41,952 bases of DNA, taken from positions 1 through 41,952 of the IMG/VR virus record IMGVR_UViG_3300033143_003529; one strand, given 5' to 3'. The notes beneath the pieces are model-generated. The model made no database searches and was not told where the DNA came from. It saw only the letters and a list, made by a program, of their open reading frames with translations. The translations under genes and the position numbers were made by a program. The stretch is from a virus. Below, in pieces: positions 4,155 through 23,655 of this stretch; within the stretch, counting starts at the first letter, position 1; every line of letters begins with the position of its first letter.

Positions 4155-5915
4155 TTAAGTTCGTGAAGTTAATCCTTCTAATTCTCTAACCCCTTTCATT
4201 ATTCCATCGGCCATTTGATTCTCTTGTTGTCCTGGCATCTCTGGAACTTGAATTTGAGGTTGTTCTGCTTTTTTCTTTTCAAACTCTTCAACCTCTCTTA
4301 ATTCATCAGGAGTTAAGTCTATAATCTCAAGAGTTCTTCTTTGAATAATCCTTTGAAGTGCGGGATTATCAGGGAATTGTTGTTTTACTGCCATTAGTTT
4401 CTGTAATCCACTCACATTCTCTGCTTCTTGTTCAGAGCTTGACTTAGATATAATTTGGTATCCTTCCTTTGACTTCCACTCTATTGGTTTAATCTTTCTA
4501 GACCATATCTTTCCCTTAGAAGAGGTCTTATAGAGAGTCCTCGTTTTACCATCGTTGGCATCCAGGATTTTGTACCATTTTGAGGCTAATTCTTTCCAAG
4601 ACCTTCTATAAAACTTAGCCATACTCATCGTCATCTCCATTGATTTACCAACAAGCATTTCAACCTCCCCTAAGGTAATTTGTTTCTTCTCTGACACCCC
4701 TTTCTCTGTAGCTGTAGTAGATGTACCCTTCTCTACAAGCTTAATTAAGAAATCAATCATCGTAAGTGTATCCTCTAATCCTGATATATTAACCGGCATT
4801 ATCGTGTCTTTAGGATTACCTGGAGCTGGGAGCATTTTTCCTGCACCAGGAGTATAAGTTTGAGGTTGGTATCCTTGTTGAGTTGAGTCATACCAATGCA
4901 TTTGGAAGTTCTTTAGAGTTCTATTCTCTATCATTTGAGAAAACCATATATTTAACACCTTATTAGGAACTCTCACTAAATCAGCAGGCCCATCTGACCA
5001 TATATCTTGAGTTTCTACGTCATCTCCCCAAGTTACGAATGGTAAGAAGTCCACTCCTAGCATCTTTTTAAGTGGTTCCTTTAAGAGTCTAATACGATCA
5101 TCTACATAAACCACTACATATCTGACGAATTCTTTAATTTTAGGATCCCACAAATAAGGATAATGCTCACTTAGGTTAAGAATAGTATCTCCGGCTTGGA
5201 AATGAGCAAAGTCTTTATCTTCTACTCCCATAGCCTTTAATCTCTCTTGTTTTGCCTCTAAAGCCTTCTGATTCGCTTGAGATTGAATAATCCCCTCTTT
5301 CATTGAAAGATACTTATTTAGCTCTTTTTTACCCTTTTTAGTATAATTTGGGTTCGCTAGAACCTCTCTAAGCGATCTAAATATGTTCTGATGAATTAAG
5401 AATCGTGCAGTTTCTATATTTAATGGATTTACCATTGGATCTACTATCACGTCATAAATATCCAATGCGTCTATATCAAACTCATCGTTAAGGAAGTTTA
5501 ATTTCTTAAAGGCTCTACCATAGAGCATAGTAGTTTTCTTGTCTTGAATATCTACTCCCTCATAATTAAGTCTATCAGCGTCTTCATCCCATCTCGCCTG
5601 TAAGAATAGCTCCTTCTGCATATCACCAGTCTTCTCTTTAAATGTTATGCTTGGTGGATCATCTATCTTACTTAAAATAGTCTTAATCGTTTCTTTCATT
5701 AAAGGAATATTAACCGCTTGTCTTTGAGTTAAACGATTTGTTCTTACTTTATTCCTATAAAGCTCATAGTTGTCGTCCCAATTCTCGTGTCTTCTTTCTT
5801 GAAAATCAAAAGCAACTGTCTTTTGCTTAACAAGTTTTTGCATTAAAGAATCCGAAAGCTCATTTCCCTTCGTTTCGTCTTTTTGTGCAGGGTTATAATA
5901 TTGTACTGTTGGCAT
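4155..5915 (-). CDS. Portal protein
   Basis: About 586 aa from the ATG at 5915. An upstream in-frame GTG at 5969 would give 604 aa, but it lies in the loop of a strong hairpin and has no ribosome site, so the ATG is preferred. Length, an acidic/basic N-terminal wing with ITFKEKTG, the DIYDVIVDP segment, a long helical stem region and a Gln/Glu-rich C-terminus fit large podovirus-type portals. It sits just after the terminase genes. The portal would form the dodecameric DNA channel at the capsid vertex. It is expressed from the promoter at 6033-6060. Confidence 0.8.
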   Translation of the reverse strand: MPTVQYYNPAQKDETKGNELSDSLMQKLVKQKTVAFDFQERRHENWDDNYELYRNKVRTNRLTQRQAVNIPLMKETIKTILSKIDDPPSITFKEKTGDMQKELFLQARWDEDADRLNYEGVDIQDKKTTMLYGRAFKKLNFLNDEFDIDALDIYDVIVDPMVNPLNIETARFLIHQNIFRSLREVLANPNYTKKGKKELNKYLSMKEGIIQSQANQKALEAKQERLKAMGVEDKDFAHFQAGDTILNLSEHYPYLWDPKIKEFVRYVVVYVDDRIRLLKEPLKKMLGVDFLPFVTWGDDVETQDIWSDGPADLVRVPNKVLNIWFSQMIENRTLKNFQMHWYDSTQQGYQPQTYTPGAGKMLPAPGNPKDTIMPVNISGLEDTLTMIDFLIKLVEKGTSTTATEKGVSEKKQITLGEVEMLVGKSMEMTMSMAKFYRRSWKELASKWYKILDANDGKTRTLYKTSSKGKIWSRKIKPIEWKSKEGYQIISKSSSEQEAENVSGLQKLMAVKQQFPDNPALQRIIQRRTLEIIDLTPDELREVEEFEKKKAEQPQIQVPEMPGQQENQMADGIMKGVRELEGLTSRT

Positions 5916-5945
5916 TTGTTTGTACGCTTTTCCCTTGAAAGAAAA

Positions 5946-5995
5946 GCGGGCTATCGCAAACTCTAACACAAAGTGTAGAATCTATGATAGCCCGC
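5946..5995 (-). terminator. Leader hairpin with U-rich tail upstream of portal
   Basis: Perfect 10-bp inverted repeat (5946-5955 with 5986-5995). The 30-nt loop holds a second hairpin (ACAC/GTGT, 5966-5976). On the minus strand the stem is followed by TTTTCTTTC, as in an intrinsic terminator. It lies between a consensus promoter and the portal ATG, so it may be an attenuator, a stop for readthrough from upstream, or an mRNA-stabilising 5' structure. Confidence 0.6.
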
Positions 5996-6097: not shown

Positions 6098-6301
6098 TTA
6101 CACTTTCCATAAGGGATGAATTGCTTGTATCTCTCTCATATTTTTATCTTTATCAAAATGTAATATCATTTTACCAGGCCCAAATCTATGAACTTGTGCG
6201 TGAGCTAACCTAATAAAGTAGTCTTTAAGTTTCTCTGCTTCAATGGGAGAGATATTATCTAGCTCTATATTTATTATTGCTTTAGTTACTTGTGTGTCCA
6301 T
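6098..6301 (-). CDS. Small hypothetical protein after TerL
   Basis: 67 aa, not recognised. It has alternating beta/helix character, with an amphipathic helix (EAEKLKDYFIRLAHAQ) and no membrane segment or Cys. Its start codon overlaps the TerL stop by one base, so translation is coupled. The promoter for the portal lies just after it, making this the last gene of the upstream packaging transcript. A role in packaging is only suggested by position. Confidence 0.6.
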   Translation of the reverse strand: MDTQVTKAIINIELDNISPIEAEKLKDYFIRLAHAQVHRFGPGKMILHFDKDKNMREIQAIHPLWKV

Positions 6302-7542
6302 TAGTGTCCAACTTCAGGGTAATACGGATTTAAAGGTTTAGTTGCTTCGACTTGTTGTACTATTATTGGCTTATAAGAGAATATCGCATATCTTATAGCA
6401 TCCATTAAATGATCGTTAAACTTCTCTGGCACGTCCTTAGATGCCTTTTCTTCCTCATCTTCGGGGTAATGATACATACTCACCTCAGATAGCGTTTCAG
6501 GACAAGTATTAAATATAAAGAATCTCTTCTCTCTTATTAATTGTTGAATATAACTTACACCACCCTTAACGTCTTTATTAGTCTCCATTACTGGTATAGA
6601 ATCTCTCCGACACTCTTCTATTCTATCTGGCTCTGCTGGATCAGGATATACTTTATTAACCCTATGTTCTGTTAGTTTGTTCTTAATAACCTGTCGTATC
6701 TCTTCTGTGGTTCTCTCTGCCTTCTTCCACTCACTCGTAATATACCACACATTATCATAAAAATAACAAACTGCTATTGCTGCTGGATTTCTATAACCCC
6801 AATCAATTCCTATTATTCTAGCTTCAGCTTTTTTCATTATATCTCTGGGATCAATAATTTGTTCGTCTGGTATATCATAAACTAACCCAGTCATCTTCTT
6901 AAACTCTCCCATGTATCTCCTGGCAAACTCTTCTGGTCTTAATCTACGCATCTCTGCGTCATAAAACTCTTTTGAGAAATAAGGACTTTCTATTGATTTC
7001 CAGCTAAATAACGATAAACTCTTATCCTCTCCTTTATCCCAGGGTATATAGAAATCTCTATAAAGCCACTTTAAGTTATAAGGAGTAGTAGTAATGAGTC
7101 CCTGTCCACCAGTCATTGATACTCTTGACCTTAATACTGTCCAAGTAAGAACAGATGTCATACCTCCCTCGTCTAACCACCACCAGCTTAATGTCATTCC
7201 CTCTATTCCTAAAGGATTATCAGCTGACCTAATAAATACCTTTCCTCCTGTCGGGAGATCTATTACTCCTTTCTGCTCTTTGTGATACTTTCTTAATTCG
7301 GGAAATATCTCAAAGAACTTTGGCATTGTAGATTGCTGAAGTATTTTATAAGTAGGTGCTATGATTGCTCCATACTTACCAGGGCCAGGGAATTCCATTA
7401 TCTTCTTTCCAGCCCAATGACAACCTAAGAATGTCTTACCAGACTGAACACCACAAATCACAGCTCCAAATTGTGTAGTAAAGTTAAATGCTGCAAATTG
7501 TTTAGGGAAGAACTTAACCGTCCTCTCTCTTGGATTTGTCAT
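6301..7542 (-). CDS. terL: Terminase large subunit (ATPase-nuclease)
   Basis: 413 aa. The N-terminal ATPase has Walker A GVQSGKT (31-37) and Walker B LDEG (123-126) after a hydrophobic strand, followed by TTTP (151-154) as the coupling motif. The C-terminal RNase H-like nuclease has GIDWG (Asp247), an Asp near 301 and NDHLMDAIRY (Asp377/Asp381), the expected acidic triad. It cuts and pumps phage DNA into the prohead through the portal. It overlaps the TerS-like gene by 29 bases. Length is typical of Terminase_6-type enzymes. Confidence 0.95.
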   Translation of the reverse strand: MTNPRERTVKFFPKQFAAFNFTTQFGAVICGVQSGKTFLGCHWAGKKIMEFPGPGKYGAIIAPTYKILQQSTMPKFFEIFPELRKYHKEQKGVIDLPTGGKVFIRSADNPLGIEGMTLSWWWLDEGGMTSVLTWTVLRSRVSMTGGQGLITTTPYNLKWLYRDFYIPWDKGEDKSLSLFSWKSIESPYFSKEFYDAEMRRLRPEEFARRYMGEFKKMTGLVYDIPDEQIIDPRDIMKKAEARIIGIDWGYRNPAAIAVCYFYDNVWYITSEWKKAERTTEEIRQVIKNKLTEHRVNKVYPDPAEPDRIEECRRDSIPVMETNKDVKGGVSYIQQLIREKRFFIFNTCPETLSEVSMYHYPEDEEEKASKDVPEKFNDHLMDAIRYAIFSYKPIIVQQVEATKPLNPYYPEVGH

Positions 7543-7813
7543 TATCTAATACAACTTTAATAATAAATGGTAGCTTATCTCCTTTTACTTCAACCTTCTC
7601 TGTTATCTTACCTAAAAGTCTATTAAGAATCTCTACTATAATTTTAGAATTACCACTCTCAATAGCTTTCTTAATAGCTTTTACTAACTTCTCTTTATCT
7701 GCCAATATCTCATCTTCAAAATACTCTTGAAATGATTCAGCTTGAATTGTAGCTTTGTTCTTAGCTCCCTTTGATCTTCCACCAGTTTTCTCTCGTCCTT
7801 TAGTGAATGGCAT
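7514..7813 (-). CDS. Terminase small subunit-like protein
   Basis: 99 aa. The basic N-terminus with GGRSKGAKNKA resembles the DNA-contacting segment of DUF5681-type proteins found next to TerL. A helical middle (AIKKAIESG, VEILNRLLGK) could mediate oligomerisation. It is positioned directly before and overlapping TerL. Recognition of packaging sites is inferred from context. It is shorter than many TerS proteins, so a different DNA-binding accessory role is possible. Confidence 0.65.
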   Translation of the reverse strand: MPFTKGREKTGGRSKGAKNKATIQAESFQEYFEDEILADKEKLVKAIKKAIESGNSKIIVEILNRLLGKITEKVEVKGDKLPFIIKVVLDNDKSKREDG

Positions 7814-7910
7814 ATTGCTCTAGTATAGATAGAATAGAATATAATAGATATACTATTACTACTCCTCCTACTAACTTTAGTAATTGAATTATTGTTTCTC
7901 CTTTACTCAT
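7800..7910 (-). CDS. Possible 36-aa membrane peptide
   Basis: A short frame from the ATG at 7910 bridges the 210-aa gene and the TerS-like gene, overlapping both. It encodes one hydrophobic helix (LLKLVGGVVIVYLLYSILSI). The GGAG sequence lies too close to the ATG for a good ribosome site, so the real start is uncertain. It fills an otherwise empty gap of about 90 bases. Confidence 0.4.
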   Translation of the reverse strand: MSKGETIIQLLKLVGGVVIVYLLYSILSILEQYAIH

Positions 7911-8535
7911 ACTCCTTTAACACCCAATAATTCTTATTAAGATAATGAGTTATAACCTTTCCCAGCTCTACGCCTGCTTTTATATTAGATCGTAATGTTG
8001 CTATCTCTTGATCTAAACCACCTTCTTTTCGTTGTCTTTTTTCTGACCACTCTCCCTCCATTTGTTCTTCCATTCTTGATACATCTAATTCAAGTGCGGC
8101 TAATATTGTATAAAGCTTTAATATCTCATTGGCTGTCTTTTCTAACTCCTTTCGTTCTTTTCTTCTATTGTCTCCATGTTTCATCTCAACTAACTCTTTA
8201 ATCTTGGCTTCCCATATTTCTTTTCTTGCTGCGTTTATCTCATCCGCTAATTCTTTTGGCGATTGTCCTGGCTTTAATGTCCTAACAACATCTAATAGCC
8301 CTAATAAGTCTTTTGGTAGTTCAGCTTTTTGGAATAACTTCTCAATTTCGTCCTTTACTGCTCTTACATGTTCAGATGTTTTATCAAAGAGTTGTCTTAT
8401 TCCCTCTTTAATTTCTACAAGAGTTGCTATTCTTACCTCGTGTTTCCACGTTTTCCTAACAATTAAGAATATCTCCATTTTTAGAAACTTCCTTTTTCTA
8501 TAGTTTTGTCTAAGTCTTTTAATATATTTTAACAT
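7903..8535 (-). CDS. Hypothetical coiled-coil protein
   Basis: 210 aa, strongly charged and mostly helical. Long Glu/Lys/Arg heptad-like stretches (residues about 35-70 and 95-190) suggest coiled coils. A basic first 25 residues precede it; no signal peptide, Cys cluster or catalytic motif. It lies between the glycan island and the terminase genes and overlaps the rhamnosyltransferase fragment by 17 bases. Function unknown; the position near terminase would also suit a packaging accessory. Confidence 0.55.
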   Translation of the reverse strand: MLKYIKRLRQNYRKRKFLKMEIFLIVRKTWKHEVRIATLVEIKEGIRQLFDKTSEHVRAVKDEIEKLFQKAELPKDLLGLLDVVRTLKPGQSPKELADEINAARKEIWEAKIKELVEMKHGDNRRKERKELEKTANEILKLYTILAALELDVSRMEEQMEGEWSEKRQRKEGGLDQEIATLRSNIKAGVELGKVITHYLNKNYWVLKEYE

Positions 8536-8743
8536 ATTTTGTTATAAATTTACCTATTTCCCATTTAATACGTCTATAAAACGATGGACTCTCGTGGAAT
8601 AATACATAACCTTTCTCATATATTAATCCACCACGTTCTCTTAATTGATAAAGTTGAATCTCTTTAATCGCATCTCTCGAAAGCATATCATCACTATCTA
8701 GTTTGGTGATAAGAACGAAAGGCTTGTCTAATTTTCCATCCAT
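8519..8743 (-). pseudogene. Fragment of a rhamnosyltransferase-like gene
   Basis: 74 aa. VLITKLDSDDMLSRDAIKEIQ resembles the central (T/L)RLDxDD core of the putative rhamnosyltransferase family (PF11316-like), and parallels WETILGSDDMAHEKAVECIQ of the intact gene just upstream. The N- and C-terminal thirds of such an enzyme are missing, and an in-frame stop lies just before the ATG. It overlaps the 306-aa gene by 50 bases. Most likely a decayed duplicate; a short functional peptide cannot be excluded. Confidence 0.5.
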
Positions 8744-9614
8744 ACTTATAAACGCCTATCTTAATTAATAATTGTAAAAACCATCGCTTTATTACTGCTT
8801 TACCCTCTCTTACTTCTCCCTCTATATCAGAGGGCGTTTCGACCTTGATACCAAAACCCCTTAAGATTTCAGTTCCTTGTTGCCAAGTAAATAGTTTTCC
8901 TCTAAATGGATGCCACCAATTTGTGCTGATGTTATTCTTGTGAACCAAATAACAATACATTCCATCGTTTAACTTCTCACAATCAAATAGATTTGGAATA
9001 TCCTCGTGAGTTTTAAATCCTTTCATATACTCAACGTGCTTTTCTGCGTTTAAAAATGTTTCCATTGGATACATAATTGTATAAAATGGTGGGTTTGTTT
9101 CTGGATTCCACTCTGCCAATCTCTGTGTATTTGCGTTAAAAAGATACCCATCACCATGAGTAAGTGCTTTATTTTTCTCTGATTCGTGTTCTTGAATACA
9201 CTCTACAGCTTTCTCGTGAGCCATATCATCAGAGCCAAGTATAGTTTCCCATATATATTCTTTTCCCTCACAAATCTCTCTTAAAGCGGGTAGTGTCTTA
9301 GTGAGTCTTTCTAATAGATTATCATTCTCATATTTATCGTCCCAGAACCCAATGCCGTGAAATGTAAATACAAACTTATAATCTATACTCTTTAAATATC
9401 TATACAACTCTTTTATTAAAGGCCTTTCTTTATCTACTTGCCTAAATGAAATCCAATGAACGAAGTTTTTGTTTGTTTGATTTAATAGGCTTTTAAGGGT
9501 GTAATTCTTAAATATCATTATCCTATAAGAAAGCCACTCATCGCTAAAACGATTACGATGTACTCCTAAACCCGTAAAGGGTGTCATTATAAAATGGACA
9601 AAGTTTTTATTCAT
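8694..9614 (-). CDS. Putative rhamnosyltransferase-like glycosyltransferase
   Basis: 306 aa. The N-terminus NFVHFIMTPFTGLG, then LLNQTNKNFVHWISF, followed by WETILGSDDMAHEKAV with an acidic SDD core, fits the GT-A-like putative rhamnosyltransferase family (PF11316 type). No membrane segment is evident. Its start overlaps the stop of the upstream methyltransferase gene, making it part of the glycan operon. It probably transfers a sugar to the growing glycan. The family call rests on overall pattern. Confidence 0.65.
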   Translation of the reverse strand: MNKNFVHFIMTPFTGLGVHRNRFSDEWLSYRIMIFKNYTLKSLLNQTNKNFVHWISFRQVDKERPLIKELYRYLKSIDYKFVFTFHGIGFWDDKYENDNLLERLTKTLPALREICEGKEYIWETILGSDDMAHEKAVECIQEHESEKNKALTHGDGYLFNANTQRLAEWNPETNPPFYTIMYPMETFLNAEKHVEYMKGFKTHEDIPNLFDCEKLNDGMYCYLVHKNNISTNWWHPFRGKLFTWQQGTEILRGFGIKVETPSDIEGEVREGKAVIKRWFLQLLIKIGVYKYGWKIRQAFRSYHQTR

Positions 9615-10183
9615 ACTTCTGCCGAGATAATATAGCCATCGTCTTTATAATTAATACCTGGCCATAATGCTCTTGGTATTTTTTTTAATTTAATATTCTT
9701 AAAACCGTTTTTCCTTAATAATACCTCATAATCTCTCATAGAATAACCTTTATATTTATATCTCCTATCTTTTACATCTGCCTTATCGTCATACTCCCAC
9801 TCAACGTGTTCTTTTGGCTCATCGAAAACGTTTATTTCAATTAAGATAACCTCTTTTTTCGCAGATTTTTTAATGTTTTTTATAACTTGACCAATCTTCT
9901 CCTCGGGAATATACATTAATGTCGCAGCAAGAAAAACTATATCAAACTTTCTCTTAAATGGCTCATCTGTGTCTGTAATATCTTTAAGTTTTATTGTTGT
10001 GTTCGGAACTTTACTAGCTGATTCAGTCCTTGTTTCATCAATATCACATCCCCACATTTTCACTTCTGGATACTTTTCATTAATTGCCCTTAAATTATCA
10101 CCCTGCCCACACCCCATTTCTAATATTGACTCAAATTCTCTTCCCTTTAAAGCAGTTAATATTATGTCTGTATATTTTTTCAT
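9611..10183 (-). CDS. SAM-dependent methyltransferase (class I)
   Basis: 190 aa. ILEMGCGQGDNL (motif I) and GCDIDETRTESA (motif II) form the SAM site; DIVFLAATLMYIP is motif IV and the Ile/Glu-rich strand near residue 125 is motif V. It is similar in size and order to the adjacent 242-aa methyltransferase, suggesting an old duplication. The start overlaps the stop of that gene by 4 bases. Sugar O- or N-methylation is inferred from the surrounding glycan genes. Confidence 0.8.
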   Translation of the reverse strand: MKKYTDIILTALKGREFESILEMGCGQGDNLRAINEKYPEVKMWGCDIDETRTESASKVPNTTIKLKDITDTDEPFKRKFDIVFLAATLMYIPEEKIGQVIKNIKKSAKKEVILIEINVFDEPKEHVEWEYDDKADVKDRRYKYKGYSMRDYEVLLRKNGFKNIKLKKIPRALWPGINYKDDGYIISAEV

Positions 10184-10908
10184 CTAATACAAGTAATTAT
10201 GTAACCAAAGTTAGCCCAAAGATTAACCGGCCACATTTCTGCTGTTATTTTAGATATTTGAACTCGCTTAAAATAGTGCTTGGCCAACAGTTTCTCATAA
10301 TCATAAGCGTAATAAGAACGGTGATTGTCCCACCAGACAGCAAATCTATCAAACCACTTCGGAGAATGAAGCTCTATAAATATCATCCGGTTATATCCCA
10401 CTCTACGAATTTCTCTTAAAACCCTATCAATTCTATTGGGTGGAATATACATCAGCATAGCGTGGGTTAAAACTAAGTCATAACTCTCTCCGTTAAAGGG
10501 TAAGTTTGTAGCGTTTCCAACCTTTAATTCTATTTCTCTCAAATCGTGTTCTTCTAAAAAGATTTCTCCCGACTCTCTCATTTCTTTTCTTCTTGGATTT
10601 TCGTCTTTATTATATTTTATAGTTCTGTCTATTTTAGGAAAAGTATGCTGTTTAAACTTCTCTTGAGCAATTTTAATAGCTTCTGCGTTAATATCACAAC
10701 CAGCTACAACCGTATCTTTGAATTCTTTTTTAATATTAAACAAGTTAGCACCCGCACCACACCCTATCTCCAAAACGCTTCGGAATCTATTATAATTTCC
10801 TATTATTCTGATTATTTCTTTTCGCATTGGGTGATCCAGGTTCCAATAATGTGAATCCCAATCTATGTTGCGAGTAGTCCAAAATTTATCGTTCTTTGAT
10901 AAAGTCAT
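10180..10908 (-). CDS. SAM-dependent methyltransferase (class I)
   Basis: 242 aa. VLEIGCGAGANLFNI (motif I), AGCDINAEAIKIA (motif II), YDLVLTHAMLMYIPP (motif IV) and MIFIELHSP (motif V) give a complete Methyltransf_11/25-like core. An insertion of about 50 residues between motifs II and III is rich in Lys, Arg and Glu. It overlaps the upstream GT-B-like gene by 23 bases. Likely a glycan-tailoring enzyme. Confidence 0.82.
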   Translation of the reverse strand: MTLSKNDKFWTTRNIDWDSHYWNLDHPMRKEIIRIIGNYNRFRSVLEIGCGAGANLFNIKKEFKDTVVAGCDINAEAIKIAQEKFKQHTFPKIDRTIKYNKDENPRRKEMRESGEIFLEEHDLREIELKVGNATNLPFNGESYDLVLTHAMLMYIPPNRIDRVLREIRRVGYNRMIFIELHSPKWFDRFAVWWDNHRSYYAYDYEKLLAKHYFKRVQISKITAEMWPVNLWANFGYIITCIR

Positions 10909-11692
10909 AATTGTTCACGTTCTTACGCCAAAACTCTCTGGCTATTAGATTGGGTTTCTCTCTTTTACACACCATCTCTAATAGACAGAGTAACTCCTCC
11001 TCAGTTTCATAATTCCAAATATGTGGATATTTTATTCGTGAAATTGGATATTGTCCCATTAAAACAGACTTCGCTAAAACCTCAGAAAATCCATCATGTT
11101 CGTTAAGTCTTAATCCACAATGATAACTCTTAATATCTTTATTAAATTGCTTATTTGATACCCTACCATGATAAATTATATTACATGGAGATTTTTGAAT
11201 GTCTGTTCCATAAATATGAAATACAATATTGGGTAACGATGTTGCTATTTTTTCTACTATATTCCATCCATATTCATCTTCTCTACCCATATGACCCGTT
11301 ATAAATACATGTGCTTTCTCTACCTTTGGAGGATAAAAACACACAGGAAAATCATTAATATCTTCTAAAAATGATGGCTTAATCTCTGAGTCAATCCCTT
11401 TCCACAATAATCCTGCTCTCTCAACGCCATTCTCGCAATAATGCTTTGCGTTTCTAAATAATAAATACCAAGGGAAAATGCTTTTTAATAATGTTTGAAT
11501 ATCACTCCCAGCCCAAACGATTGTCTTTTTACCTCTATGAATAAAATAGTGAAAATAATCTCCTATGTGATACATTCCAAAAAATACAATGGGTTTAAAT
11601 ATATCCCACGGAAAACAATATCGTTCTAATCCCCAAGTCTTTTCTGCCTTATCACGAAAATTGACTATTGATGAGGATACTCTTAGTTTCAC
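10886..11692 (-). CDS. GT-B-like glycosyltransferase
   Basis: 268 aa. The N-terminal half carries a short Rossmann-like part (KTIVWAGSD). The C-terminal half has IVFHIYGTD, then GLRLNEHDGFSEVLAKSVLMGQYPI, which matches the donor-binding Glu-containing motif of GT-B enzymes (GT4-like). It is shorter than a typical 350-400 aa GT4, so the acceptor domain is reduced. Its start overlaps the stop of the CapD-like gene. Donor sugar unknown. Confidence 0.65.
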   Translation of the reverse strand: MKLRVSSSIVNFRDKAEKTWGLERYCFPWDIFKPIVFFGMYHIGDYFHYFIHRGKKTIVWAGSDIQTLLKSIFPWYLLFRNAKHYCENGVERAGLLWKGIDSEIKPSFLEDINDFPVCFYPPKVEKAHVFITGHMGREDEYGWNIVEKIATSLPNIVFHIYGTDIQKSPCNIIYHGRVSNKQFNKDIKSYHCGLRLNEHDGFSEVLAKSVLMGQYPISRIKYPHIWNYETEEELLCLLEMVCKREKPNLIAREFWRKNVNNYDFIKER

Positions 11693-12516
11693 GTTAATTG
11701 AATTGGTTTAATAATAAAGAATCCATCTCTTTCTTCTACTTTCTCGTCTGAAGCAATTAGTTCTTCAAAAAGCTTCTCTCCTGGCCTTGTTCCTATAATC
11801 TTAATTTCAATATCTTTACCAGACGTCCTGATAGTTTGTTTAGCTAAATCCATTATATTTATGGGTTGTCCCATATCCATAATAAGTATCTCGCCAGGTT
11901 GTCCTATTTCTGACGCTTTAATCACTAATCTACATGCTTGGCCCATACTCATAAAGAATCTTTTCATTTGAGGGTGGGTTACAGTTACTGGCCCTCCCTT
12001 TTCTATTTGTTTCTTCCATAAAGGAATAATACTACCTCTACTTACCAAGACGTTGCCAAACCTAACAGCAACATATCCAGCAGATTGACACATTCTCTCT
12101 CCCTCTTTCTTGGTTTGTCCCATTACACAAGTAGGATTAACAGCCTTATCGCTTGAAATAAATATAAACTTCTCAATATTATGTTTTAAAGAAATATCAA
12201 TTAAGTTCCTTGTTCCTATTATGTTTGTTTTAAAAGCTTCTTTGGAAAACACCTCCATTAGTCCAACGTGTTTATACGCTGCTGCATGAAATACTATATC
12301 TGGCTTGTATTTTTCAAAAACTTCTTTAATTCGGTCTTTCTCTCGGATATTAGCCAGAATTGGAGTAACTAAATATTCTTGTATTAAATTAAAGAGTTCA
12401 CTTTCGTTTTGGTCTAACGCTAAAATCTCCTTCGGATGAAGTTTAGATATTTCCCTTACTAATCCTGAGCCGATAGAACCAGCTGCACCAGTAATTAATA
12501 CCCTTTTATTCTTCAT
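11689..12516 (-). CDS. NDP-sugar 4,6-dehydratase-like SDR (CapD/PseB/PglF group)
   Basis: 275 aa. GAAGSIGS (10-17) binds NAD(P). HAAAYKHVGLME (78-88) and SSDKAVNPTCVMGQTKK (121-137) are hallmark motifs of this group, in which Met132 replaces the usual SDR Tyr and Lys136 is kept; Ser-Asp-Lys (122-124) is the dehydratase triad. Such enzymes convert UDP-GlcNAc to a 4-keto-6-deoxy sugar. It is a soluble form without the membrane domain of the largest relatives, and short for the group. It overlaps the second SDR gene. Confidence 0.85.
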   Translation of the reverse strand: MKNKRVLITGAAGSIGSGLVREISKLHPKEILALDQNESELFNLIQEYLVTPILANIREKDRIKEVFEKYKPDIVFHAAAYKHVGLMEVFSKEAFKTNIIGTRNLIDISLKHNIEKFIFISSDKAVNPTCVMGQTKKEGERMCQSAGYVAVRFGNVLVSRGSIIPLWKKQIEKGGPVTVTHPQMKRFFMSMGQACRLVIKASEIGQPGEILIMDMGQPINIMDLAKQTIRTSGKDIEIKIIGTRPGEKLFEELIASDEKVEERDGFFIIKPIQLT

Positions 12517-13375
12517 GTTTTTTTATTTTACCATCTTTTAACCAATCTTTCAAGCCATTTTTAAATATAAATTGAGGTTTATAGCCCAATTCCTTCTTGG
12601 CTTTTGAAATATCATAAACAAAACGAAGTGGATCAACCGTTCTTAATGGTAATCTTTCAAATTCTTTATGATAACCAAAGAACTCTGCCATTACGTTAAA
12701 CACCTCTTCTGTAGAAATCTCTTCTCCTGTACCGATGTTGTAAGATTCGTTAAGTTTCTTTGATTCTAAAGCTAAAAGGTTCGCCTGAACTATATCTTTA
12801 ATATAAGTAAAGTCATTTGATTGTTTGCCACCATAAAGCTTAGGAGCCATTCCCCTATCCATTCTATCTATAAAACCTCCTATCGCACCATGTCCAATTT
12901 TACCTTCTCCGTAAAGATGAGCATATCGAAGTATAATATGTTTTACTAATTTTTCTTTCTTAATAATATATTCTCCGATGGCTTTTGAGCAACCATAAAC
13001 AGAATTACCCCTAACCTGAAAGTCTTCTTTAATCGGAGGTTCTTCTTGAATGGGCATATAAACCGAACCAGTAGAAGCATAAACTAATCTCTCTACTCCC
13101 TTCCAAAGACACGCCTTAACCACGTTTTCTGTTCCCTTAATATTAGTTTCGTATGTTAGTAATGGGTCTTTATCTGCGTCTGAAAATCTTGCTATCGCAG
13201 CTAAATGTAAAACCTTATCGCCTTTTTTAATAGCACGCTTGAGTTGTCTAAAATCTCTTATATCTAGTCCACACTTAGTATCAAAGTTTAAAACTTCGTA
13301 TCCCTTTTCTTTTAAAGCATCTATCGTGGGCGTTCCTACAAAACCAGAACCTCCGGTAACTATTACTTTACTCAT
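12506..13375 (-). CDS. NAD-dependent epimerase/dehydratase (extended SDR)
   Basis: 289 aa. GGSGFVG (8-14) is the NAD-binding loop, HLAA (57-60) follows, STGSVY sits near 101 and Tyr127-x3-Lys131 (YGCSK) is the catalytic pair. The C-terminal substrate-binding part (YNIGTGEEIS) is typical of sugar epimerases and dehydratases. It probably makes or modifies a nucleotide sugar used by the operon. The start overlaps the acyltransferase stop by 8 bases. The exact reaction cannot be told from motifs. Confidence 0.85.
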   Translation of the reverse strand: MSKVIVTGGSGFVGTPTIDALKEKGYEVLNFDTKCGLDIRDFRQLKRAIKKGDKVLHLAAIARFSDADKDPLLTYETNIKGTENVVKACLWKGVERLVYASTGSVYMPIQEEPPIKEDFQVRGNSVYGCSKAIGEYIIKKEKLVKHIILRYAHLYGEGKIGHGAIGGFIDRMDRGMAPKLYGGKQSNDFTYIKDIVQANLLALESKKLNESYNIGTGEEISTEEVFNVMAEFFGYHKEFERLPLRTVDPLRFVYDISKAKKELGYKPQFIFKNGLKDWLKDGKIKKHEE

Positions 13376-13760
13376 ATTTTTCTGCTGGGCTACCTCGCCA
13401 TTTCTCGTTGGCTGGTATGCTTTTAGTTACTAAACTTCCTGCTCCGACAAAAACATTTTCACCTATTACAATGCCTGGTAGAATAATACAACCACCACCT
13501 ATAACAGCTCCCTCTCCTACGATAGTTTCTTCAAGACTATCTGATGGTGGATATTTGTCATTTAAAAATGTAACTCTTGGGCCGATGAAAACATTATCTT
13601 CAATAATTACTCCTCGTGGAATAAAAGCAAAAGATTGAATATTACAATTCTCACCTATAATTCCCCCAATATCACAAAATGAACCAATCCTTGTTCCATC
13701 ACCTATGTCGTAAGGATCATAAAAGTTATTATAAAACCATTGTTCATATTTTTTTTCCAT
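13368..13760 (-). CDS. Hexapeptide-repeat sugar acyltransferase (WlbB/FdtC-like)
   Basis: 130 aa. Repeated hexapeptides (IGENCN, IEDNVF, IGPRVT, VGEGAV, IGGGCI, IGENVF, VGAGSL) build a left-handed beta-helix. The loop FIGPRVTFLNDKYPP and the end SIPANEKWRGSPAEKY resemble WlbB/WbpD and FdtC acetyltransferases, which N-acetylate amino sugars made by DegT aminotransferases. It lacks the N-terminal nucleotide-binding domain of PglD. It directly follows and overlaps the DegT gene, which supports that role. Confidence 0.85.
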   Translation of the reverse strand: MEKKYEQWFYNNFYDPYDIGDGTRIGSFCDIGGIIGENCNIQSFAFIPRGVIIEDNVFIGPRVTFLNDKYPPSDSLEETIVGEGAVIGGGCIILPGIVIGENVFVGAGSLVTKSIPANEKWRGSPAEKYE

Positions 13761-14721
13761 AAAAGTCTTTGATTTTTTTAATTACATACTCGACCTCTTT
13801 ATTTGAAAGATTTTCATTACAAGGAATTCTTAATGTTTCTGATTCATATTTTTGAGCAACGGGTAGTTTAGGATACTTAAACGCCAAAGGATATTCATTC
13901 TTTATGGTTTCTACACCATGCTCTTTAAGATAATCATAAAACCCATCTCTATTATTTGTTGATGATATAATAAAGTCTTGCCATACTCTACCTGGTTGAT
14001 TATTAGGTAATCCAACATCTTTTAATTTTTTAAGATATATTTCAGCGATTTCTTTTCTTCTTTTTAAAATCTCGTCTATGTGATTAAACTTCACTAAAAG
14101 TAAGGCTGCTTGTAGGTTATCCATTCTTGAATTAATACCAAAACCCGAATTCTCGCCCTTAAAATGATTTCTCGCTTCTTTTACATAGTTATAAACTACC
14201 TGATTATTTGTTGTTAAGGCTCCATTGTCCCCAAACCCACCTAAAAGTTTAGCAGGATAAAAACTCCAAGCTTGAAATATACTCGTTGGGTTTTTAATTG
14301 CTCCTAATGCCTGACAAGCGTCTTCTATCACTATCATTGTCTTTGGTTTAGGAAATATCTCACCGGCAATATGAGCTACAATTCCAATTTGTCCTCCCAC
14401 TTGGCTATTCAAATCATATAAAACAGGAGTATTTCCAGACGTTAATACAGCTCCTATCGTTGACTTAAAAGTATAACAAGGCGTTATTATTTCAGCTCTT
14501 TTTGCAATCGCACTCATTCCTAATGCTAATGCGTCTGTTCCAGAATTTAATGCTACTGCGTATTTAACTCCTACATATTCGGTAAGCTTCTTTTCAAACG
14601 CTTCTATGTCACCTCTTAATATTAAATCACCACCATTCATTACTCTGAAATAAGCTTCGTCATATTCTTTTTTATATTTTCGGTATCCTTTAGGATAATT
14701 TACGAAAGGGACTTTGAACAT
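13744..14721 (-). CDS. DegT/DnrJ/EryC1/StrS sugar aminotransferase
   Basis: 325 aa, PLP-dependent. [10 protein letters not shown] (59-68) holds the phosphate, [11 protein letters not shown] places Asp134 at the PLP ring, and [18 protein letters not shown] places the Schiff-base Lys158. It would aminate a 3- or 4-keto nucleotide sugar, the kind of product made by the SDR enzymes downstream, and its amine would be acylated by the next gene. Slightly short for the family (about 365 aa), mainly in the middle. It overlaps the HNH gene by 22 bases. Confidence 0.9.
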
Positions 14722-15167
14722 AAATTTTTATGAAATTTACTATGACACTTTTTACAAAGTGTAATTCCATTATTAATATTAAATCTTAATTCTAAGTATT
14801 TTGAAAAAGCAAAAATATGATGAGAATGTAATTTTATTCCTCCTCTTTTTAAACACAAGCGACACGTCCAATTATCTCTTGCGAAAACAGATTCACGCCA
14901 TAAACGATACTCTATACTATTTCTTATTCTCATATTTTCTGATGTATTTCCATTTTTCCAAGCGTGTTGATTTTTTCTCATTATCTGACTTAATTTCTTC
15001 TTATGTTCCTCAGAAATTTTATGTCTTTTTTTAAATTGAGTATTTGGAGAAAAATGTTTTCCCTTATTTGCTATACTCATTTTCTTTTTACTTTCTTTTA
15101 GATGATGCTTTCCTTTCCGATTTTTAGCAAGTTTTTCAAGATGTAATTTTTGTTTTTCTGATTTCAT
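14700..15167 (-). CDS. HNH homing-type endonuclease with NUMOD-like repeats
   Basis: 155 aa. The N-terminal 75 residues are very basic, with repeated [13 protein letters not shown] / [12 protein letters not shown]-like NUMOD3 DNA-binding motifs. The C-terminus has [15 protein letters not shown] and [15 protein letters not shown], a complete zinc-stabilised HNH site. Its ATG overlaps the transketolase stop and its end overlaps the DegT start, so it is wedged inside the sugar operon. Probably a mobile free-standing endonuclease gene. Confidence 0.85.
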
Positions 15168-15634
15168 AATTTTACAAACGCTGGTTTTTCATTTTGATAA
15201 CTCTCTATTATTGACATTGCTACATCAATTGGAGTTTTGGGATAATACCTCTTTATGTTGGGTAAGTTTTTTAATAAGTCTTCTTCGTTTTCTTTTTCCC
15301 CAAGATTGTGGGTAAAACCAAGAAATCCACCAGAGCCAGTTCCTATTAGTTTTACATTGAGGTTATTATAACACACATCATCTCTAACTTGTTCATACGC
15401 TCTCATAAGCAAGAAAATAGCATTAGAATAACAATATGGTTTCTTTCCTGCGAGTGCTAATCCACAGGCTACTCCGATTATATTTTGTTCAGCGATTCCA
15501 CAGTTAATAAATTGCTTTGGGAGTTTATCTCTAAACGGCTCAAGAAAGGAAAATCCTAAGTCTCCGGTTAAGAGTATTATTCTGTCATCTATTTCTGCGA
15601 GTTTAAGTAGTGATTTGACGAATGCTTTTCTCAT
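15164..15634 (-). CDS. Transketolase C-subunit, pyrimidine-binding domain only
   Basis: 156 aa. [28 protein letters not shown] (catalytic Glu49) and [21 protein letters not shown] match the pyrimidine-binding domain of transketolase and DXP-synthase-like enzymes. The frame ends at PAFVKL, where the domain normally ends, so the usual transketolase C-terminal domain is missing. The HNH gene begins exactly here. It overlaps the N-subunit by 32 bases; together they could form one TPP site and may transfer a two-carbon unit to a sugar. Confidence 0.85.
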
Positions 15635-16352
15635 AAAGTTCTTTAGTTAAATTTTTATAATGCCATTCTGTTTTATCTTCCATAAAAGATACCCCTTTTC
15701 CTTTAATGGTGTTAGCAATAATACAAATAGGTTTAAGAAACTCCCATTCAAAATCAGAATCTAAATAATATTCTAATTTTGTTAAATGATGCCCATCAAG
15801 TTCTATTACATTCCAATTAAAAGATTCCCACTTTTCATCTAATCTTTCTAAATTTAATACATCATTAGTTCTACCAAACGCCTGGTGTTTATTATAATCC
15901 ACCACAACTACTAAATTATTTAATTTATGATGTGCGGCGAATAATATAGCTTCCCAGGTTGAACCCTCATCCATTTCCCCATCACTCATAAGACAATATA
16001 CTTTTCTATTTCTATCTCCTAGGGCTAATCCTACGGATACTGATAATCCATGTCCTATACTACCAACTGAATGAATAACTCCTGGCACTTCTTTATGTGG
16101 TAATGGATAGCTTTTTAAATAACCAGCTACATCTTTTTCTGGAAAATATCCTTGTTCTGCGAAAATAGAATATAGTGCCGAAGCTCCACTTGCTTTTGAA
16201 AATAAAAAAACATCTTCTGGTTTCATCGCCTCAAAAATAGCTATTAAAATCTCTACACAACTCAAAGCACTTCCTATGTGACAGGCATTTGCAGAAAATG
16301 AAGCCTTAAGTATTCTCCTTCGTATCTTTTTAGCTAATTGAATATTCTCCAT
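15603..16352 (-). CDS. Transketolase N-subunit (TPP-binding)
   Basis: 249 aa. Sequence shows His25 in the substrate/TPP region, GSIGHGLS (97-104), and the TPP/Mg motif SDGEMDEGSTWEA with Asp124 and Asn154 (DYNKHQ). The first Gly of the usual GDG is Ser here. The length matches split transketolase N-subunits. Such split pairs occur in polysaccharide clusters, where they may act on sugars. It overlaps the phosphoglycosyl transferase gene by 19 bases. Confidence 0.9.
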   Translation of the reverse strand: MENIQLAKKIRRRILKASFSANACHIGSALSCVEILIAIFEAMKPEDVFLFSKASGASALYSIFAEQGYFPEKDVAGYLKSYPLPHKEVPGVIHSVGSIGHGLSVSVGLALGDRNRKVYCLMSDGEMDEGSTWEAILFAAHHKLNNLVVVVDYNKHQAFGRTNDVLNLERLDEKWESFNWNVIELDGHHLTKLEYYLDSDFEWEFLKPICIIANTIKGKGVSFMEDKTEWHYKNLTKELYEKSIRQITT

Positions 16353-16933
16353 AATCCTGTAATTAGAATCTTAAAATCTAACACTAATGATTGTGTTTTT
16401 ACATACTCTTTTTGAAGTCGGATTTTCATAGGTCTTATATTTTTCATATAAGTCATCTCTGGATCCTTACTTCCTCGTAATCTCTCACCCTCACTCATAT
16501 TCTCAAGAGTAGCTAAATCAAGTAGTCCTGGCTTAACAGAAAGAATAATATCTCTTTCTTCTTTTAACATCATGTCAATATACATAGGAACTTCTGCTCG
16601 TGGCCCAATAAAGCTCATTTCTCCGATAAGAATATTGAATAATTGAAGTAATTCATCTATCTTCCATTTTCTTAACAACCCACCAATCTTTGTTATACGA
16701 GAATCGTCTGCTGGAGTAGATGATCCCCCAATCTTATCAGCGTTCATTACCATGGTTCTAAATTTAAACATTCTAAAGGGTTTTCCCAATAACCCTATTC
16801 TTGTTCCATAATATATTGGACTTTTTCCTATTAAAATCGCTACGATAATCATTATGGGTAACGTAAAGATTATTCCAATAATTGAAAGTATGATGTCTAA
16901 TATGCGTTTGATTGTATAATATATTTTTTTCAT
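16334..16933 (-). CDS. Monotopic phosphoglycosyl transferase (bacterial sugar transferase)
   Basis: 199 aa. A hydrophobic re-entrant helix (about 10-36) is followed by GKPFRMFKFRTM (50-61), the catalytic Asp93-Glu94 dyad in KIDELLQLFN and MSFIGPRAEVP. These are the hallmarks of PglC/WcaJ-type enzymes, which transfer a sugar phosphate from UDP-sugar to undecaprenyl phosphate at the inner membrane and start lipid-linked glycans. The size fits the minimal PglC-like form. It is at the head of the sugar operon; its ATG overlaps the stop of a small membrane protein. Confidence 0.92.
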   Translation of the reverse strand: MKKIYYTIKRILDIILSIIGIIFTLPIMIIVAILIGKSPIYYGTRIGLLGKPFRMFKFRTMVMNADKIGGSSTPADDSRITKIGGLLRKWKIDELLQLFNILIGEMSFIGPRAEVPMYIDMMLKEERDIILSVKPGLLDLATLENMSEGERLRGSKDPEMTYMKNIRPMKIRLQKEYVKTQSLVLDFKILITGLWRIFN

Positions 16934-18569: not shown

Positions 18570-18588
18570 ACGCAGATTGTGCGTCTTA
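18570..18588 (-). repeat. Stop-codon-proximal hairpin repeat, copy 2
   Basis: On the minus strand this is TAAGACGCACAATCTGCGT, starting at the stop codon of the HNH gene. It matches copy 1 at 17 of 19 positions and keeps the CGCA/TGCG stem. Confidence 0.6.
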
Positions 18589-18933
18589 TTTTAATTGCTC
18601 TATTATGTCTTGATAGTATTTTAAGGTTAAGTAGCTACCCTCTGGGCGATTTTTAGCCCTCTCTTCTAACCAATCTATCCAGTCTTGCCCTCTTTTCTCT
18701 ATTATTTGTTGTTCAATCTTTTTAGCGTCTTGATGATGTAATACAAAGTGACATTTTTTACAAAGTGTGATGTGATTATCTTTATTATAGCGTAGGTGTC
18801 CATAACTCCCTTTAAAAAAATAGTGATGTCCTTGTAATCCAAAAATTGAACCACAAACCTCACAACACTCTTCTAAGTATTTCATAAACCATAACTTGTC
18901 CGCTTGTTTTCTTAATCTTTGTTTTTTTGTCAT
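18586..18933 (-). CDS. HNH endonuclease
   Basis: 115 aa. CEVCGSIFGLQGHHYFF, then [15 protein letters not shown], contains two CxxC zinc pairs and the HH metal site of the HNH fold. A short basic N-terminus and a helical tail are present. It is far from the terminase genes, so it may be a homing/mobile endonuclease or a host-DNA nuclease. Its start overlaps the stop of the 87-aa gene by one base. Confidence 0.8.
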   Translation of the reverse strand: MTKKQRLRKQADKLWFMKYLEECCEVCGSIFGLQGHHYFFKGSYGHLRYNKDNHITLCKKCHFVLHHQDAKKIEQQIIEKRGQDWIDWLEERAKNRPEGSYLTLKYYQDIIEQLK

Positions 18934-19196: not shown

Positions 19197-19378
19197 TTTT
19201 TTATTAAATTAATTATAAAATCTCCTATATCGTCTATTAAAACATAAAGCGAAAGAACTACTGCTATTGCTCCCGAGATTGAAAAAACTATGTTTGGGAC
19301 TAAAATATAGAAAGCGTATTTGGTAAGAATTAGTCCGAAAAAGATCGCGATTGAGATTAGTGGGATTGTGTAGTTCAT
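19184..19378 (-). CDS. Small two-helix membrane protein, holin-like
   Basis: 64 aa with two hydrophobic helices (about 4-26 and 30-48) and a basic C-terminus ending KKCSK. The architecture fits class II holins, but it is about 6 kb from the lysis cassette that has its own holin candidate. It may instead be an early-expressed membrane protein acting on the host. Start overlaps the methylase stop. Confidence 0.5.
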   Translation of the reverse strand: MNYTIPLISIAIFFGLILTKYAFYILVPNIVFSISGAIAVVLSLYVLIDDIGDFIINLIKKCSK

Positions 19379-23282: not shown

Positions 23283-23630
23283 TTATATTAAGCTAATTAC
23301 CTTTCGACCTTTGGATTTTCCTCTAATAGGAGAATGAATCGATAAATGACAACTTCTACAAAGAGATATTAGATTAGATGGATCGTTGTTATAATTATCT
23401 CCATCAACGTGATGGATTAGTATGGCTCCCTCTAAACACCTTTGACACTTAAAATTATCTCTCTGTAAAATTGATTGAAACAATACATCCAACCAATGAT
23501 ATTTTTTACAATTTTTTCTTCTATTAGGTTCAACGTATCCACTAATTAATTGATGAATTCTTTGACGGCTAACACCAAATAATTTACCAATCGACTGATA
23601 TGACAATCCCCTTCTTTTTAGTCGCTTCAT
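23283..23630 (-). CDS. HTH-HNH endonuclease
   Basis: 115 aa from the ATG at 23630. An in-frame ATG at 23648 would add six residues, but it coincides with the predicted transcription start, while the ATG at 23630 has AAGAGA 8-12 bases upstream. The N-terminus RGLSYQSIGKLFGVSRQRIHQLI is a helix-turn-helix of the sigma/resolvase kind. The C-terminus CQRCLEGAILIHHVDGDNYNNDPSNLISLCRSCH is a full HNH site. The HTH may give target specificity or self-regulation. Confidence 0.8.
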   Translation of the reverse strand: MKRLKRRGLSYQSIGKLFGVSRQRIHQLISGYVEPNRRKNCKKYHWLDVLFQSILQRDNFKCQRCLEGAILIHHVDGDNYNNDPSNLISLCRSCHLSIHSPIRGKSKGRKVISLI

Positions 23631-23655
23631 TTGTGTTATTCTCTTCATTATAGTT

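What the first reader, a model, noticed from the sequence alone, without database searches (positions are those of the whole stretch)
8519..16933. A phage-encoded activated-sugar and lipid-linked glycan pathway
Seen: a phosphoglycosyl transferase, a CapD/PglF-like dehydratase, a DegT aminotransferase and a hexapeptide acyltransferase occur in one operon with an epimerase, transferases, methyltransferases and a split transketolase. Known: PglF-PglE-PglD-PglC builds and loads an acetamido sugar. The set resembles that logic, although the acyltransferase looks WlbB-like. Inference: remodelling of the host surface or supply of a glycan for the virion.
Basis: partly seen in the sequence, partly recalled or inferred. 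Interest (0 to 1): 0.8.

Follow-up and report, generated by a model that had tools for sequence, protein, structure and literature searches.

The report
Conserved phage rare-sugar cassette
A group of phages known only from environmental DNA, probably infecting the ultra-small Patescibacteria, carries beside its DNA-packaging genes a conserved set of genes that seems to make an unusual activated amino sugar and attach it to something, most likely the host's surface, possibly the virus particle.

Summary
Window 8694-16933 carries 12 overlapping minus-strand genes inside a circularly closed phage genome, just upstream of the terminase genes: a PglC-type phosphoglycosyltransferase, a split transketolase, an HNH protein, a DegT aminotransferase, a hexapeptide acetyltransferase, an SDR epimerase, a PglF-type dehydratase, two glycosyltransferases and two methyltransferases.

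The interpretation needs correcting. The ends are Pgl-like, but the aminotransferase and acetyltransferase are of the 3-amino-sugar class (QdtB/WbpE, QdtC/WlbB), so this is not a bacillosamine pathway. It is not passive host DNA: the cassette recurs in all 13 records of at least 37 kb examined from a phage group absent from 50,697 named phages, and its two glycosyltransferase families co-vary with capsid and portal genes. Relatives add an N-acetyl-sugar amidotransferase (12 of 13), which the window lacks. The phosphoglycosyltransferase is optional (5 of 13), so lipid linkage is not the conserved function. Portal homologues occur in Patescibacteria, once as a prophage, and in no sampled Bacteroidota or Pseudomonadota.

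Best reading: a lineage-core module that makes and transfers a rare UDP-amino sugar. Host envelope is the likelier acceptor; virion decoration is the main rival. The transketolase may branch the sugar. New variant of a known kind.

The parts
16334..16933 (-). Small phosphoglycosyltransferase, PglC type (PF02397)
   Evidence: Pfam E 1e-48; best solved relative PglC 8g1n/8e37, 80 bits; Asp93-Glu94 dyad and N-terminal hydrophobic helix; present in 5 of 13 larger records
15603..16352 (-). Split transketolase, thiamine-pyrophosphate-binding (PP) part
   Evidence: PF00456 E 4e-18; profile best match 6yak, the split transketolase of C. hydrogenoformans, 250 bits; 12 of 13 larger records
15164..15634 (-). 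Split transketolase, pyrimidine (Pyr) part, 156 aa, without the transketolase C-terminal domain
   Evidence: PF02779 E 7e-19; about 160 aa in nearly all relatives; bacterial homologues are about 305 aa except in some Patescibacteria
14700..15167 (-). HNH endonuclease-like ORF, probably an inserted homing-type element, not part of the pathway
   Evidence: PF01844 E 4e-7; other HNH ORFs lie at varying places in relatives' cassettes
13744..14721 (-). DegT aminotransferase, 3-keto-sugar class (QdtB/WbpE-like)
   Evidence: PF01041 E 3e-50; profile bits QdtB 306, WbpE 268, 1o61 140; SFYPAK lysine invariant
13368..13760 (-). Left-handed beta-helix N-acetyltransferase, QdtC/WlbB-like
   Evidence: Hexapep E 2e-19; best solved relatives 7s3u 96 bits, WxcM-like 92, QdtC 79, WlbB-type 3mqg 56
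12506..13375 (-). SDR nucleotide-sugar epimerase or reductase (function uncertain)
   Evidence: PF01370 E 6e-44; YGCSK and GGSGFVG motifs; 7 of 13 larger records
11689..12516 (-). Soluble UDP-GlcNAc 4,6-dehydratase, PglF/WbpM type (catalytic core only, 275 aa)
   Evidence: PF02719 E 4e-98; best solved relative WlaL/PglF 5bju; SDK-x7-M-x3-K
10886..11692 (-). Phage-specific glycosyltransferase gtX, predicted GT-B fold (GT4-like)
   Evidence: No Pfam, NCBIfam, PHROGs or PDB sequence match; AlphaFold model pLDDT 89; Foldseek SenB, PimA, SdgB E about 1e-7
10180..10908 (-). SAM methyltransferase
   Evidence: PF13649 E 6e-18; homologues in 13 of 13 larger records
9611..10183 (-). SAM methyltransferase, related to the preceding one
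   Evidence: PF13649 E 4e-12
8694..9614 (-). Glycosyltransferase rhamT (PF11316-like), predicted GT-A fold with basic C-terminal tail
   Evidence: PF11316 E 4e-6 over a short stretch; AlphaFold pLDDT 82; Foldseek heparosan synthase 2, K4CP, TarP; basic tail; 13 of 13 larger records
7903..8535 (-). Coiled-coil-like protein between the cassette and the small terminase; similar short ORFs at this place in relatives
   Evidence: no convincing family match
7514..7813 (-). Probable small terminase subunit
   Evidence: Position and ORF; weak homologues upstream of terL in some relatives
6301..7542 (-). Terminase large subunit, the conserved neighbour of the cassette
   Evidence: PF03237 E 2e-11, phrog_2 E 4e-42
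4155..5969 (-). Portal-like protein that defines the phage group
   Evidence: At least 160 relatives in IMG/VR; none in 50,697 named phages; the name portal rests on position and size

Best explanation
The island is a core module of an uncultivated phage lineage that probably infects Patescibacteria. It makes a rare UDP-activated amino sugar and transfers it. Proposed route (enzyme classes are shown by sequence; every reaction is inferred): the PglF-type dehydratase turns UDP-GlcNAc into the 4-keto-6-deoxy sugar. The split transketolase and the 3-keto-type DegT aminotransferase, with the acetyltransferase and, in relatives, the WbpG-type amidotransferase, modify the ring. In the window the PglC-type enzyme loads the sugar phosphate onto undecaprenyl phosphate. 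The two phage-specific glycosyltransferases (one GT-B, one GT-A with a basic, probably membrane-binding tail) and the methyltransferases extend or cap the product. No flippase, polymerase or ligase is recognised in the window, so export would use host machinery. The likeliest final acceptor is a host envelope glycan, so that the infected cell or its debris no longer binds phage. The acceptor step is inferred only.
For: Intact families and motifs in an unbroken run of overlapping genes. Near-identical content and order in all larger relatives at 44-56% mean identity, so the proteins are under selection. gtX, rhamT, methyltransferase, dehydratase and amidotransferase distances track portal or capsid distances (r 0.48-0.80, p <= 0.0015), as capsid tracks portal (0.66). 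gtX comes with rhamT in 34 of 35 IMG/VR contigs and with terL or portal in 28 of 35. gtX and rhamT are absent from 207 Patescibacteria genomes. For membrane association: PglC-type enzyme in 5 of 13 and basic rhamT tails. For the host: portal homologues in three Patescibacteria genomes, one inside a 149-kb contig with an integrase, none in 375 Bacteroidota or 378 Pseudomonadota, and C-domain-less transketolases in Patescibacteria.
Against: No enzyme was assayed. No recognised 3,4-ketoisomerase explains how a 3-keto substrate arises from the PglF product. The role of the transketolase is unproven. The window lacks the amidotransferase that 12 of 13 larger records carry, so its product would differ. 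The phosphoglycosyltransferase is missing from most relatives. The prophage in G420 lacks the cassette. The host of this particular phage was not linked directly.
Confidence: 0.5

Rival explanations
1. Virion decoration: the sugar is transferred to a phage structural protein (capsid, tail or fibre), giving a glycosylated particle; host lipid carriers are used little or not at all.
For: The transfer genes evolve with capsid and portal genes (r up to 0.80) and sit beside terminase in a structural gene block. Most relatives lack the phosphoglycosyltransferase. gtX resembles, among others, protein O-glycosyltransferases SdgB and GtfA in fold. The window also has two Ser-Pro-rich proteins beside GT2-type genes, and a Patescibacteria-binned relative has sugar genes beside such a protein.
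Against: The Ser-Pro-rich proteins are absent from most cassette-bearing relatives, so they are not the common acceptor. A PglC-type enzyme in 5 of 13 and basic rhamT tails point to membranes. SdgB/GtfA similarity is fold-level only (11-15% identity) and shared with PimA and TarM.
Confidence: 0.3
2. Metabolic helper genes: the transketolase and related enzymes mainly support host central carbon metabolism (pentose phosphate pathway) in a metabolically reduced host.
For: A split transketolase is present, and Staskawiczbacteria carry a similar short pair, mostly next to glmS. A 2025 study invoked phage support of central carbon metabolism in Patescibacteriota (PMC12911398).
Against: In the phages the pair lies inside the sugar cassette beside capD and degT, and bacterial homologues lie in surface-sugar operons with degT, phosphoglycosyltransferase and capD.
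Confidence: 0.07
3. DNA hypermodification: the activated sugar is put onto phage DNA to evade restriction.
For: Phage-encoded sugar transfer to DNA is known in other phages (own knowledge); a DNA methylase gene lies at 19375-20622 (PF01555).
Against: No base-hydroxylation gene was recognised among the window genes scanned; membrane-linked features do not fit.
Confidence: 0.05
4. Passive transferred host DNA or a contig chimera without function in the phage.
For: Bacteria do carry comparable tkt-degT-phosphoglycosyltransferase-capD operons.
Against: Same cassette and place in every larger relative, co-variation with capsid genes, phage-specific glycosyltransferases, closed genome.
Confidence: 0.02

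Closest known systems
Campylobacter Pgl pathway (PglF-PglE-PglD-PglC, bacillosamine)
   Same: PglF-type dehydratase with Met-x3-Lys signature and PglC-type phosphoglycosyltransferase (PMC8987622)
   Different: Aminotransferase and acetyltransferase are of the 3-amino class, not PglE/PglD; split transketolase added; no oligosaccharyltransferase recognised
Qdt/Fdt and Wbp/Wlb pathways (3-acetamido sugars; WbpG amidination)
   Same: QdtB/WbpE-class aminotransferase, QdtC/WlbB-class acetyltransferase; relatives also carry TIGR03573 (WbuX/WbpG-type) amidotransferase, a glutamine amidotransferase and, in 5 of 13, a Gfo/Idh/MocA oxidoreductase
   Different: No 3,4-ketoisomerase and no UDP-sugar 6-dehydrogenase recognised in the island; starts with a PglF-type dehydratase; the window itself lacks the amidotransferase
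Split-gene transketolases (C. hydrogenoformans 6yak; proposed sugar-branching pairs of miharamycin and amipurimycin)
   Same: PP and Pyr parts on separate chains, next to keto-sugar genes
   Different: The phage Pyr chain lacks the transketolase C-terminal domain; the branching role is unproven even in Streptomyces (PMC12247030)
Bacterial surface-sugar operons with phosphoglycosyltransferase, degT, tktN, tktP and capD
   Same: Same enzyme set in many phyla (for example L153, L166, L169, L191, L192, L197)
   Different: Bacterial CapD is often 600-700 aa against 275 in the phage, and the Pyr chain is about 305 aa against 156; no gtX or rhamT
O-antigen nucleotide-sugar genes reported in Patescibacteriota phages (PMC12911398)
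   Same: Phages of the same host phylum carrying nucleotide-sugar genes
   Different: That paper names galE, rmlB, rmlD, manA, gmd and rmd; I found no mention of this cassette, of transketolase or of its conservation as a lineage-core module
O-antigen-modifying temperate phages (for example Kapi1, PMC8787464)
   Same: A possible outcome, altered host surface glycan (abstract only)
   Different: Those modify residues with a few transferases (own knowledge); here the phage encodes the donor-sugar pathway, and no integrase was recognised in the window

Membership tests
Pgl bacillosamine pathway | PglF-type dehydratase with [ST]DKxnMx3K | tested here: met
   SDKAVNPTCVMGQTK at residue 122; best PDB profile match WlaL. 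Window has Ser where PglF has Thr; most relatives have Thr
Pgl bacillosamine pathway | PglE-type 4-keto aminotransferase | tested here: not met
   QdtB 306 and WbpE 268 bits, 1o61 140 bits
Pgl bacillosamine pathway | PglD-type acetyltransferase with N-terminal Rossmann domain | tested here: not met
   130 aa, hexapeptide repeats only; closest to QdtC/WlbB types
Pgl bacillosamine pathway | PglC-type phosphoglycosyltransferase | tested here: met
   Best match 8g1n, 80 bits; Asp-Glu dyad
Qdt/Fdt 3-acetamido sugar pathway | 3-keto aminotransferase and 3-N-acetyltransferase | tested here: met
   by family; regiochemistry not assayed
Qdt/Fdt 3-acetamido sugar pathway | FdtA/QdtA 3,4-ketoisomerase | tested here: not met
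   No such family among the window proteins scanned
Wbp/Wlb pathway (ManNAc3NAcA) | UDP-GlcNAc 6-dehydrogenase and Gfo-type 3-dehydrogenase | tested here: not met
   Neither in the island; Gfo-type protein in 5 of 13 larger records
Split-gene transketolase | PP and Pyr domains on separate chains with cofactor motifs | tested here: met
Split-gene transketolase | Transketolase C-terminal domain on the Pyr chain | tested here: not met
   Absent in window and relatives
N-acetyl sugar amidotransferase pathway (TIGR03573) | Amidotransferase present | tested here: not met
   Absent from window; of 5 relatives' proteins tested, 4 pass the cut-off of 203 bits and the fifth scores 198
Lineage-core phage module | Conserved position and gene set across diverged relatives, co-varying with virion genes | tested here: met
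   tkt, degT, hexT and terL do not co-vary
Surface-glycan export system | Flippase, polymerase or ligase | tested here: not met
   None recognised by Pfam among the main window proteins

The most novel reading that the evidence does not exclude
The phage module makes a C2-branched amino sugar. The minimal, C-domain-less split transketolase transfers a hydroxyacetyl unit to the ketone made by the PglF-type dehydratase, giving a sugar not known from phages and showing that split-gene transketolases branch keto-sugars, a role so far only proposed for 13 Streptomyces pairs and two antibiotics (PMC12247030).
Probability: 0.15. Interest if true: 0.85.

Novelty: new variant of a known kind. Interest (0 to 1): 0.6.

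Why it matters
Phage sugar genes are usually reported as scattered auxiliary genes. Here a full donor-plus-transfer module is as much part of the lineage as its capsid genes, and carries two glycosyltransferase families that matched nothing in Pfam-A, NCBIfam, PHROGs or PDB sequences beyond a weak PF11316 hit. It gives a concrete entry into how phages deal with the surface of Patescibacteria, and no named phage record matches this group. The constant pairing of a minimal split transketolase with a keto-sugar dehydratase makes the open question of transketolase-made branched sugars directly testable with small soluble enzymes.

Tried and rejected
Direct search of viral contigs with the single window transketolase found nothing; an alignment was needed. 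Named phage records with CapD or DegT similarity are distant or look like bacterial contamination (for example 46% hits in unannotated Staphylococcus and Listeria records), and were not used. The idea that Ser-Pro-rich virion proteins are the common acceptor was rejected because most cassette-bearing relatives lack them. The idea that the short Pyr chain is truncated by the HNH insertion was rejected because relatives without HNH there have the same length. gtX and rhamT gave no sequence match in the PDB, so folds were predicted. I first expected the tkt tree to place phages as one clade; it needs at least three label changes, with only Patescibacteria interleaved, and the tkt, degT and hexT genes do not track portal, so they are probably exchanged. 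Literature searches for this cassette found no description, within an open-access library only.
Full report
WHAT IS THERE. The window is an IMG/VR virus record of 41,952 bases with an exact 114-nt repeat at its two ends, so it closes to a circle of about 41.8 kb. Nearly all substantial genes run on the minus strand. Phage genes include a terminase large subunit (6301-7542), a probable small subunit, a portal-like protein (4155-5969) and a major head protein (34299-35549). The island lies upstream of the terminase. In transcription order: phosphoglycosyltransferase, transketolase PP chain, transketolase Pyr chain, HNH protein, DegT aminotransferase, hexapeptide acetyltransferase, SDR epimerase, PglF-type dehydratase, gtX, two methyltransferases, rhamT. 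All 11 junctions overlap. The catalytic motifs are intact. The other window proteins scanned show a DNA methylase, a metallophosphoesterase, an M23 peptidase and LysM domains, but no recognised flippase, polymerase, ligase or integrase.

WHAT THE ENZYMES RESEMBLE. The dehydratase profile matches C. jejuni PglF (deposited as WlaL) at 271 bits, CapE at about 207 and the inverting enzyme PseB/FlaA1 (2gn4) at 187. Its SDK-x7-M-x3-K motif is that of the PglF/WbpM class, in which Met replaces the catalytic Tyr (PMC8987622). The phosphoglycosyltransferase is closest to PglC. The middle steps are not Pgl-like. The DegT profile scores 358 bits against 7b0d, 306 against QdtB and 268 against WbpE, but only about 140 against 1o61/4ztc, which I take to be PglE from memory. 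The acetyltransferase matches 7s3u, a WxcM-like protein, QdtC and 3mqg. So the chemistry suggested is a 2,3-diamino-type or related 6-deoxy sugar, not bacillosamine. No ketoisomerase was recognised, so this assignment stays open.

THE TRANSKETOLASE. The PP chain profile is closest to the split transketolase of C. hydrogenoformans (6yak; PMC7661550). The Pyr chain is only 156 aa and ends at the end of the Pyr domain. The same holds in relatives, so this is a stable minimal form, not a truncation. Of 80 cellular loci found with the PP chain, most have a Pyr chain of about 305 aa, often beside degT, a phosphoglycosyltransferase and a CapD commonly of 600-700 aa. Short Pyr chains were seen in Staskawiczbacteria, mostly next to glmS, and in a Wildermuthbacteria MAG. 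In a maximum-likelihood tree the phage PP chains intermingle only with Patescibacteria sequences. The cellular sample is biased, because it was chosen by similarity to the phage chains. Split transketolases have been proposed, not shown, to branch keto-sugars in miharamycin and amipurimycin synthesis (PMC12247030).

CONSERVATION. A portal profile found at least 160 relatives in IMG/VR (80 kept), while the window's portal-like protein matched nothing in 50,697 named phages. I read out 16 records in pieces. Counting those of at least 37 kb together with the window (13 records): dehydratase, DegT, Pyr chain, rhamT and methyltransferase in 13; PP chain, gtX and amidotransferase in 12; acetyltransferase in 11; glutamine amidotransferase in 9; epimerase in 7; Gfo/Idh/MocA oxidoreductase in 5; phosphoglycosyltransferase in 5. 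One PP chain and one gtX are missing at contig ends. This set was chosen from hits that carry enough flanking sequence; several more distant relatives (L104-L106, portal 43-44% identical) lack the cassette. The typical order is (phosphoglycosyltransferase)-PP-Pyr-dehydratase-DegT-(oxidoreductase)-amidotransferase-glutaminase-gtX-methyltransferase/rhamT-(epimerase-acetyltransferase)-terminase-portal. The amidotransferase is TIGR03573, above the curated cut-off in 4 of 5 tested proteins. The window is the one large member without it.

CO-INHERITANCE. Pairwise distances of gtX (r 0.71 with portal, 0.80 with capsid), rhamT (0.73, 0.78), methyltransferase (0.48, 0.80), dehydratase (0.52, 0.49) and amidotransferase (0.50, 0.63) follow the virion genes, as capsid follows portal (0.66). 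Transketolase, DegT and acetyltransferase, and also terL, do not, or only weakly. So the transfer part behaves as a core phage component, and some donor-sugar genes are exchanged. gtX occurs in 35 IMG/VR contigs, with rhamT in 34 and methyltransferase in 32. Some of these have quite different terminases (for example L247, L248, L249) yet still carry the cassette near terL. Neither gtX nor rhamT was found in 207 Patescibacteria genomes.

FOLDS. gtX is predicted with high confidence (pLDDT 89) as a GT-B enzyme, nearest to SenB, PimA and SdgB. rhamT is predicted (pLDDT 82, weak tail) as a GT-A enzyme, nearest to heparosan synthase 2, chondroitin polymerase and TarP, with low whole-chain TM-scores. 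The rhamT C-terminal tails are strongly basic (net +5 to +12 in the last 45 residues), which fits membrane contact but does not prove it.

HOST. In Patescibacteria samples (380 genomes of the phylum and 374 of one class, overlapping) the portal profile matched G420, G461 and G771 at E < 1e-159, and G282 weakly. In G420 the match lies in a 149-kb contig with an integrase-like gene, terminase, capsid and tail genes, flanked by host glycosyltransferase and membrane genes. It is a prophage, and it has no sugar cassette. None of 375 Bacteroidota or 378 Pseudomonadota genomes matched. Patescibacteria are therefore the likely host phylum of the group. The host of this particular phage was not linked directly.

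HOW IT PROBABLY WORKS. Shown: gene content, motifs, conservation and co-variation. Inferred: every reaction, the acceptor and the benefit. The most economical reading is that the phage builds its own activated rare sugar and places it, through two dedicated transferases, on a glycan of the infected cell, using host export; the particle itself is the main alternative. Known O-antigen-modifying phages offer a functional parallel for a changed surface (PMC8787464, abstract only), not a family relation.

PRIOR KNOWLEDGE. Nucleotide-sugar genes in Patescibacteriota phages were reported in 2025 (PMC12911398) and in groundwater viruses in 2024 (PMC10980836). In the passages read they name galE, rmlB, rmlD, manA, gmd, rmd and glycosyltransferases, without this cassette. 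Searches of an open-access library found no description of it; subscription papers and preprints were not covered.

Noticed in passing
window 36936-38921 and 38921-41071, with 157-2762 and 41025-41951 (continuing across the closed ends): Two proteins with long Ser-Pro-rich repeats lie directly after a block of GT2-type glycosyltransferases and a methyltransferase. One of these transferases (1908-2762) weakly matches polypeptide GalNAc-transferases (E 0.0025), suggesting O-glycosylation of the repeats. Most relatives lack both.
   Followed up: partly
L235/L236 (G461 contig C6, 10000-33200): A portal relative binned in a Patescibacteria genome has a different sugar block (SIS isomerase-like, GHMP kinase-like, nucleotidyltransferase-like, epimerase, several glycosyltransferases) beside a Ser-Pro-rich repeat protein.
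   Followed up: no
L229-L231 (G420 contig C1, about 31.5-53 kb): Prophage of this group in a Patescibacteria chromosome, inserted beside a long array of host glycosyltransferase and membrane protein genes; it lacks the sugar cassette.
   Followed up: partly
L153, L166, L169, L191, L192, L197, L207, L208, L211, L222: A bacterial operon pairing split transketolase with DegT, a phosphoglycosyltransferase and/or CapD occurs in many phyla; I found no report of its sugar product.
   Followed up: no
L158, L177, L186, L212: Staskawiczbacteria genomes carry a split transketolase whose Pyr chain lacks the C-terminal domain, in three of the four loci beside glmS.
   Followed up: no
window 14700-15167, 18586-18933, 23283-23648; L137 18241-19251: Several HNH ORFs in the genome; one sits inside the sugar operon, and in one relative (G033) an HNH-like domain is fused in frame to the transketolase Pyr chain.
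   Followed up: no
terL genes across relatives: Terminase large subunit distances do not follow portal or capsid distances, and the cassette occurs near quite different terminases, suggesting exchange around the terminase-cassette junction.
   Followed up: partly
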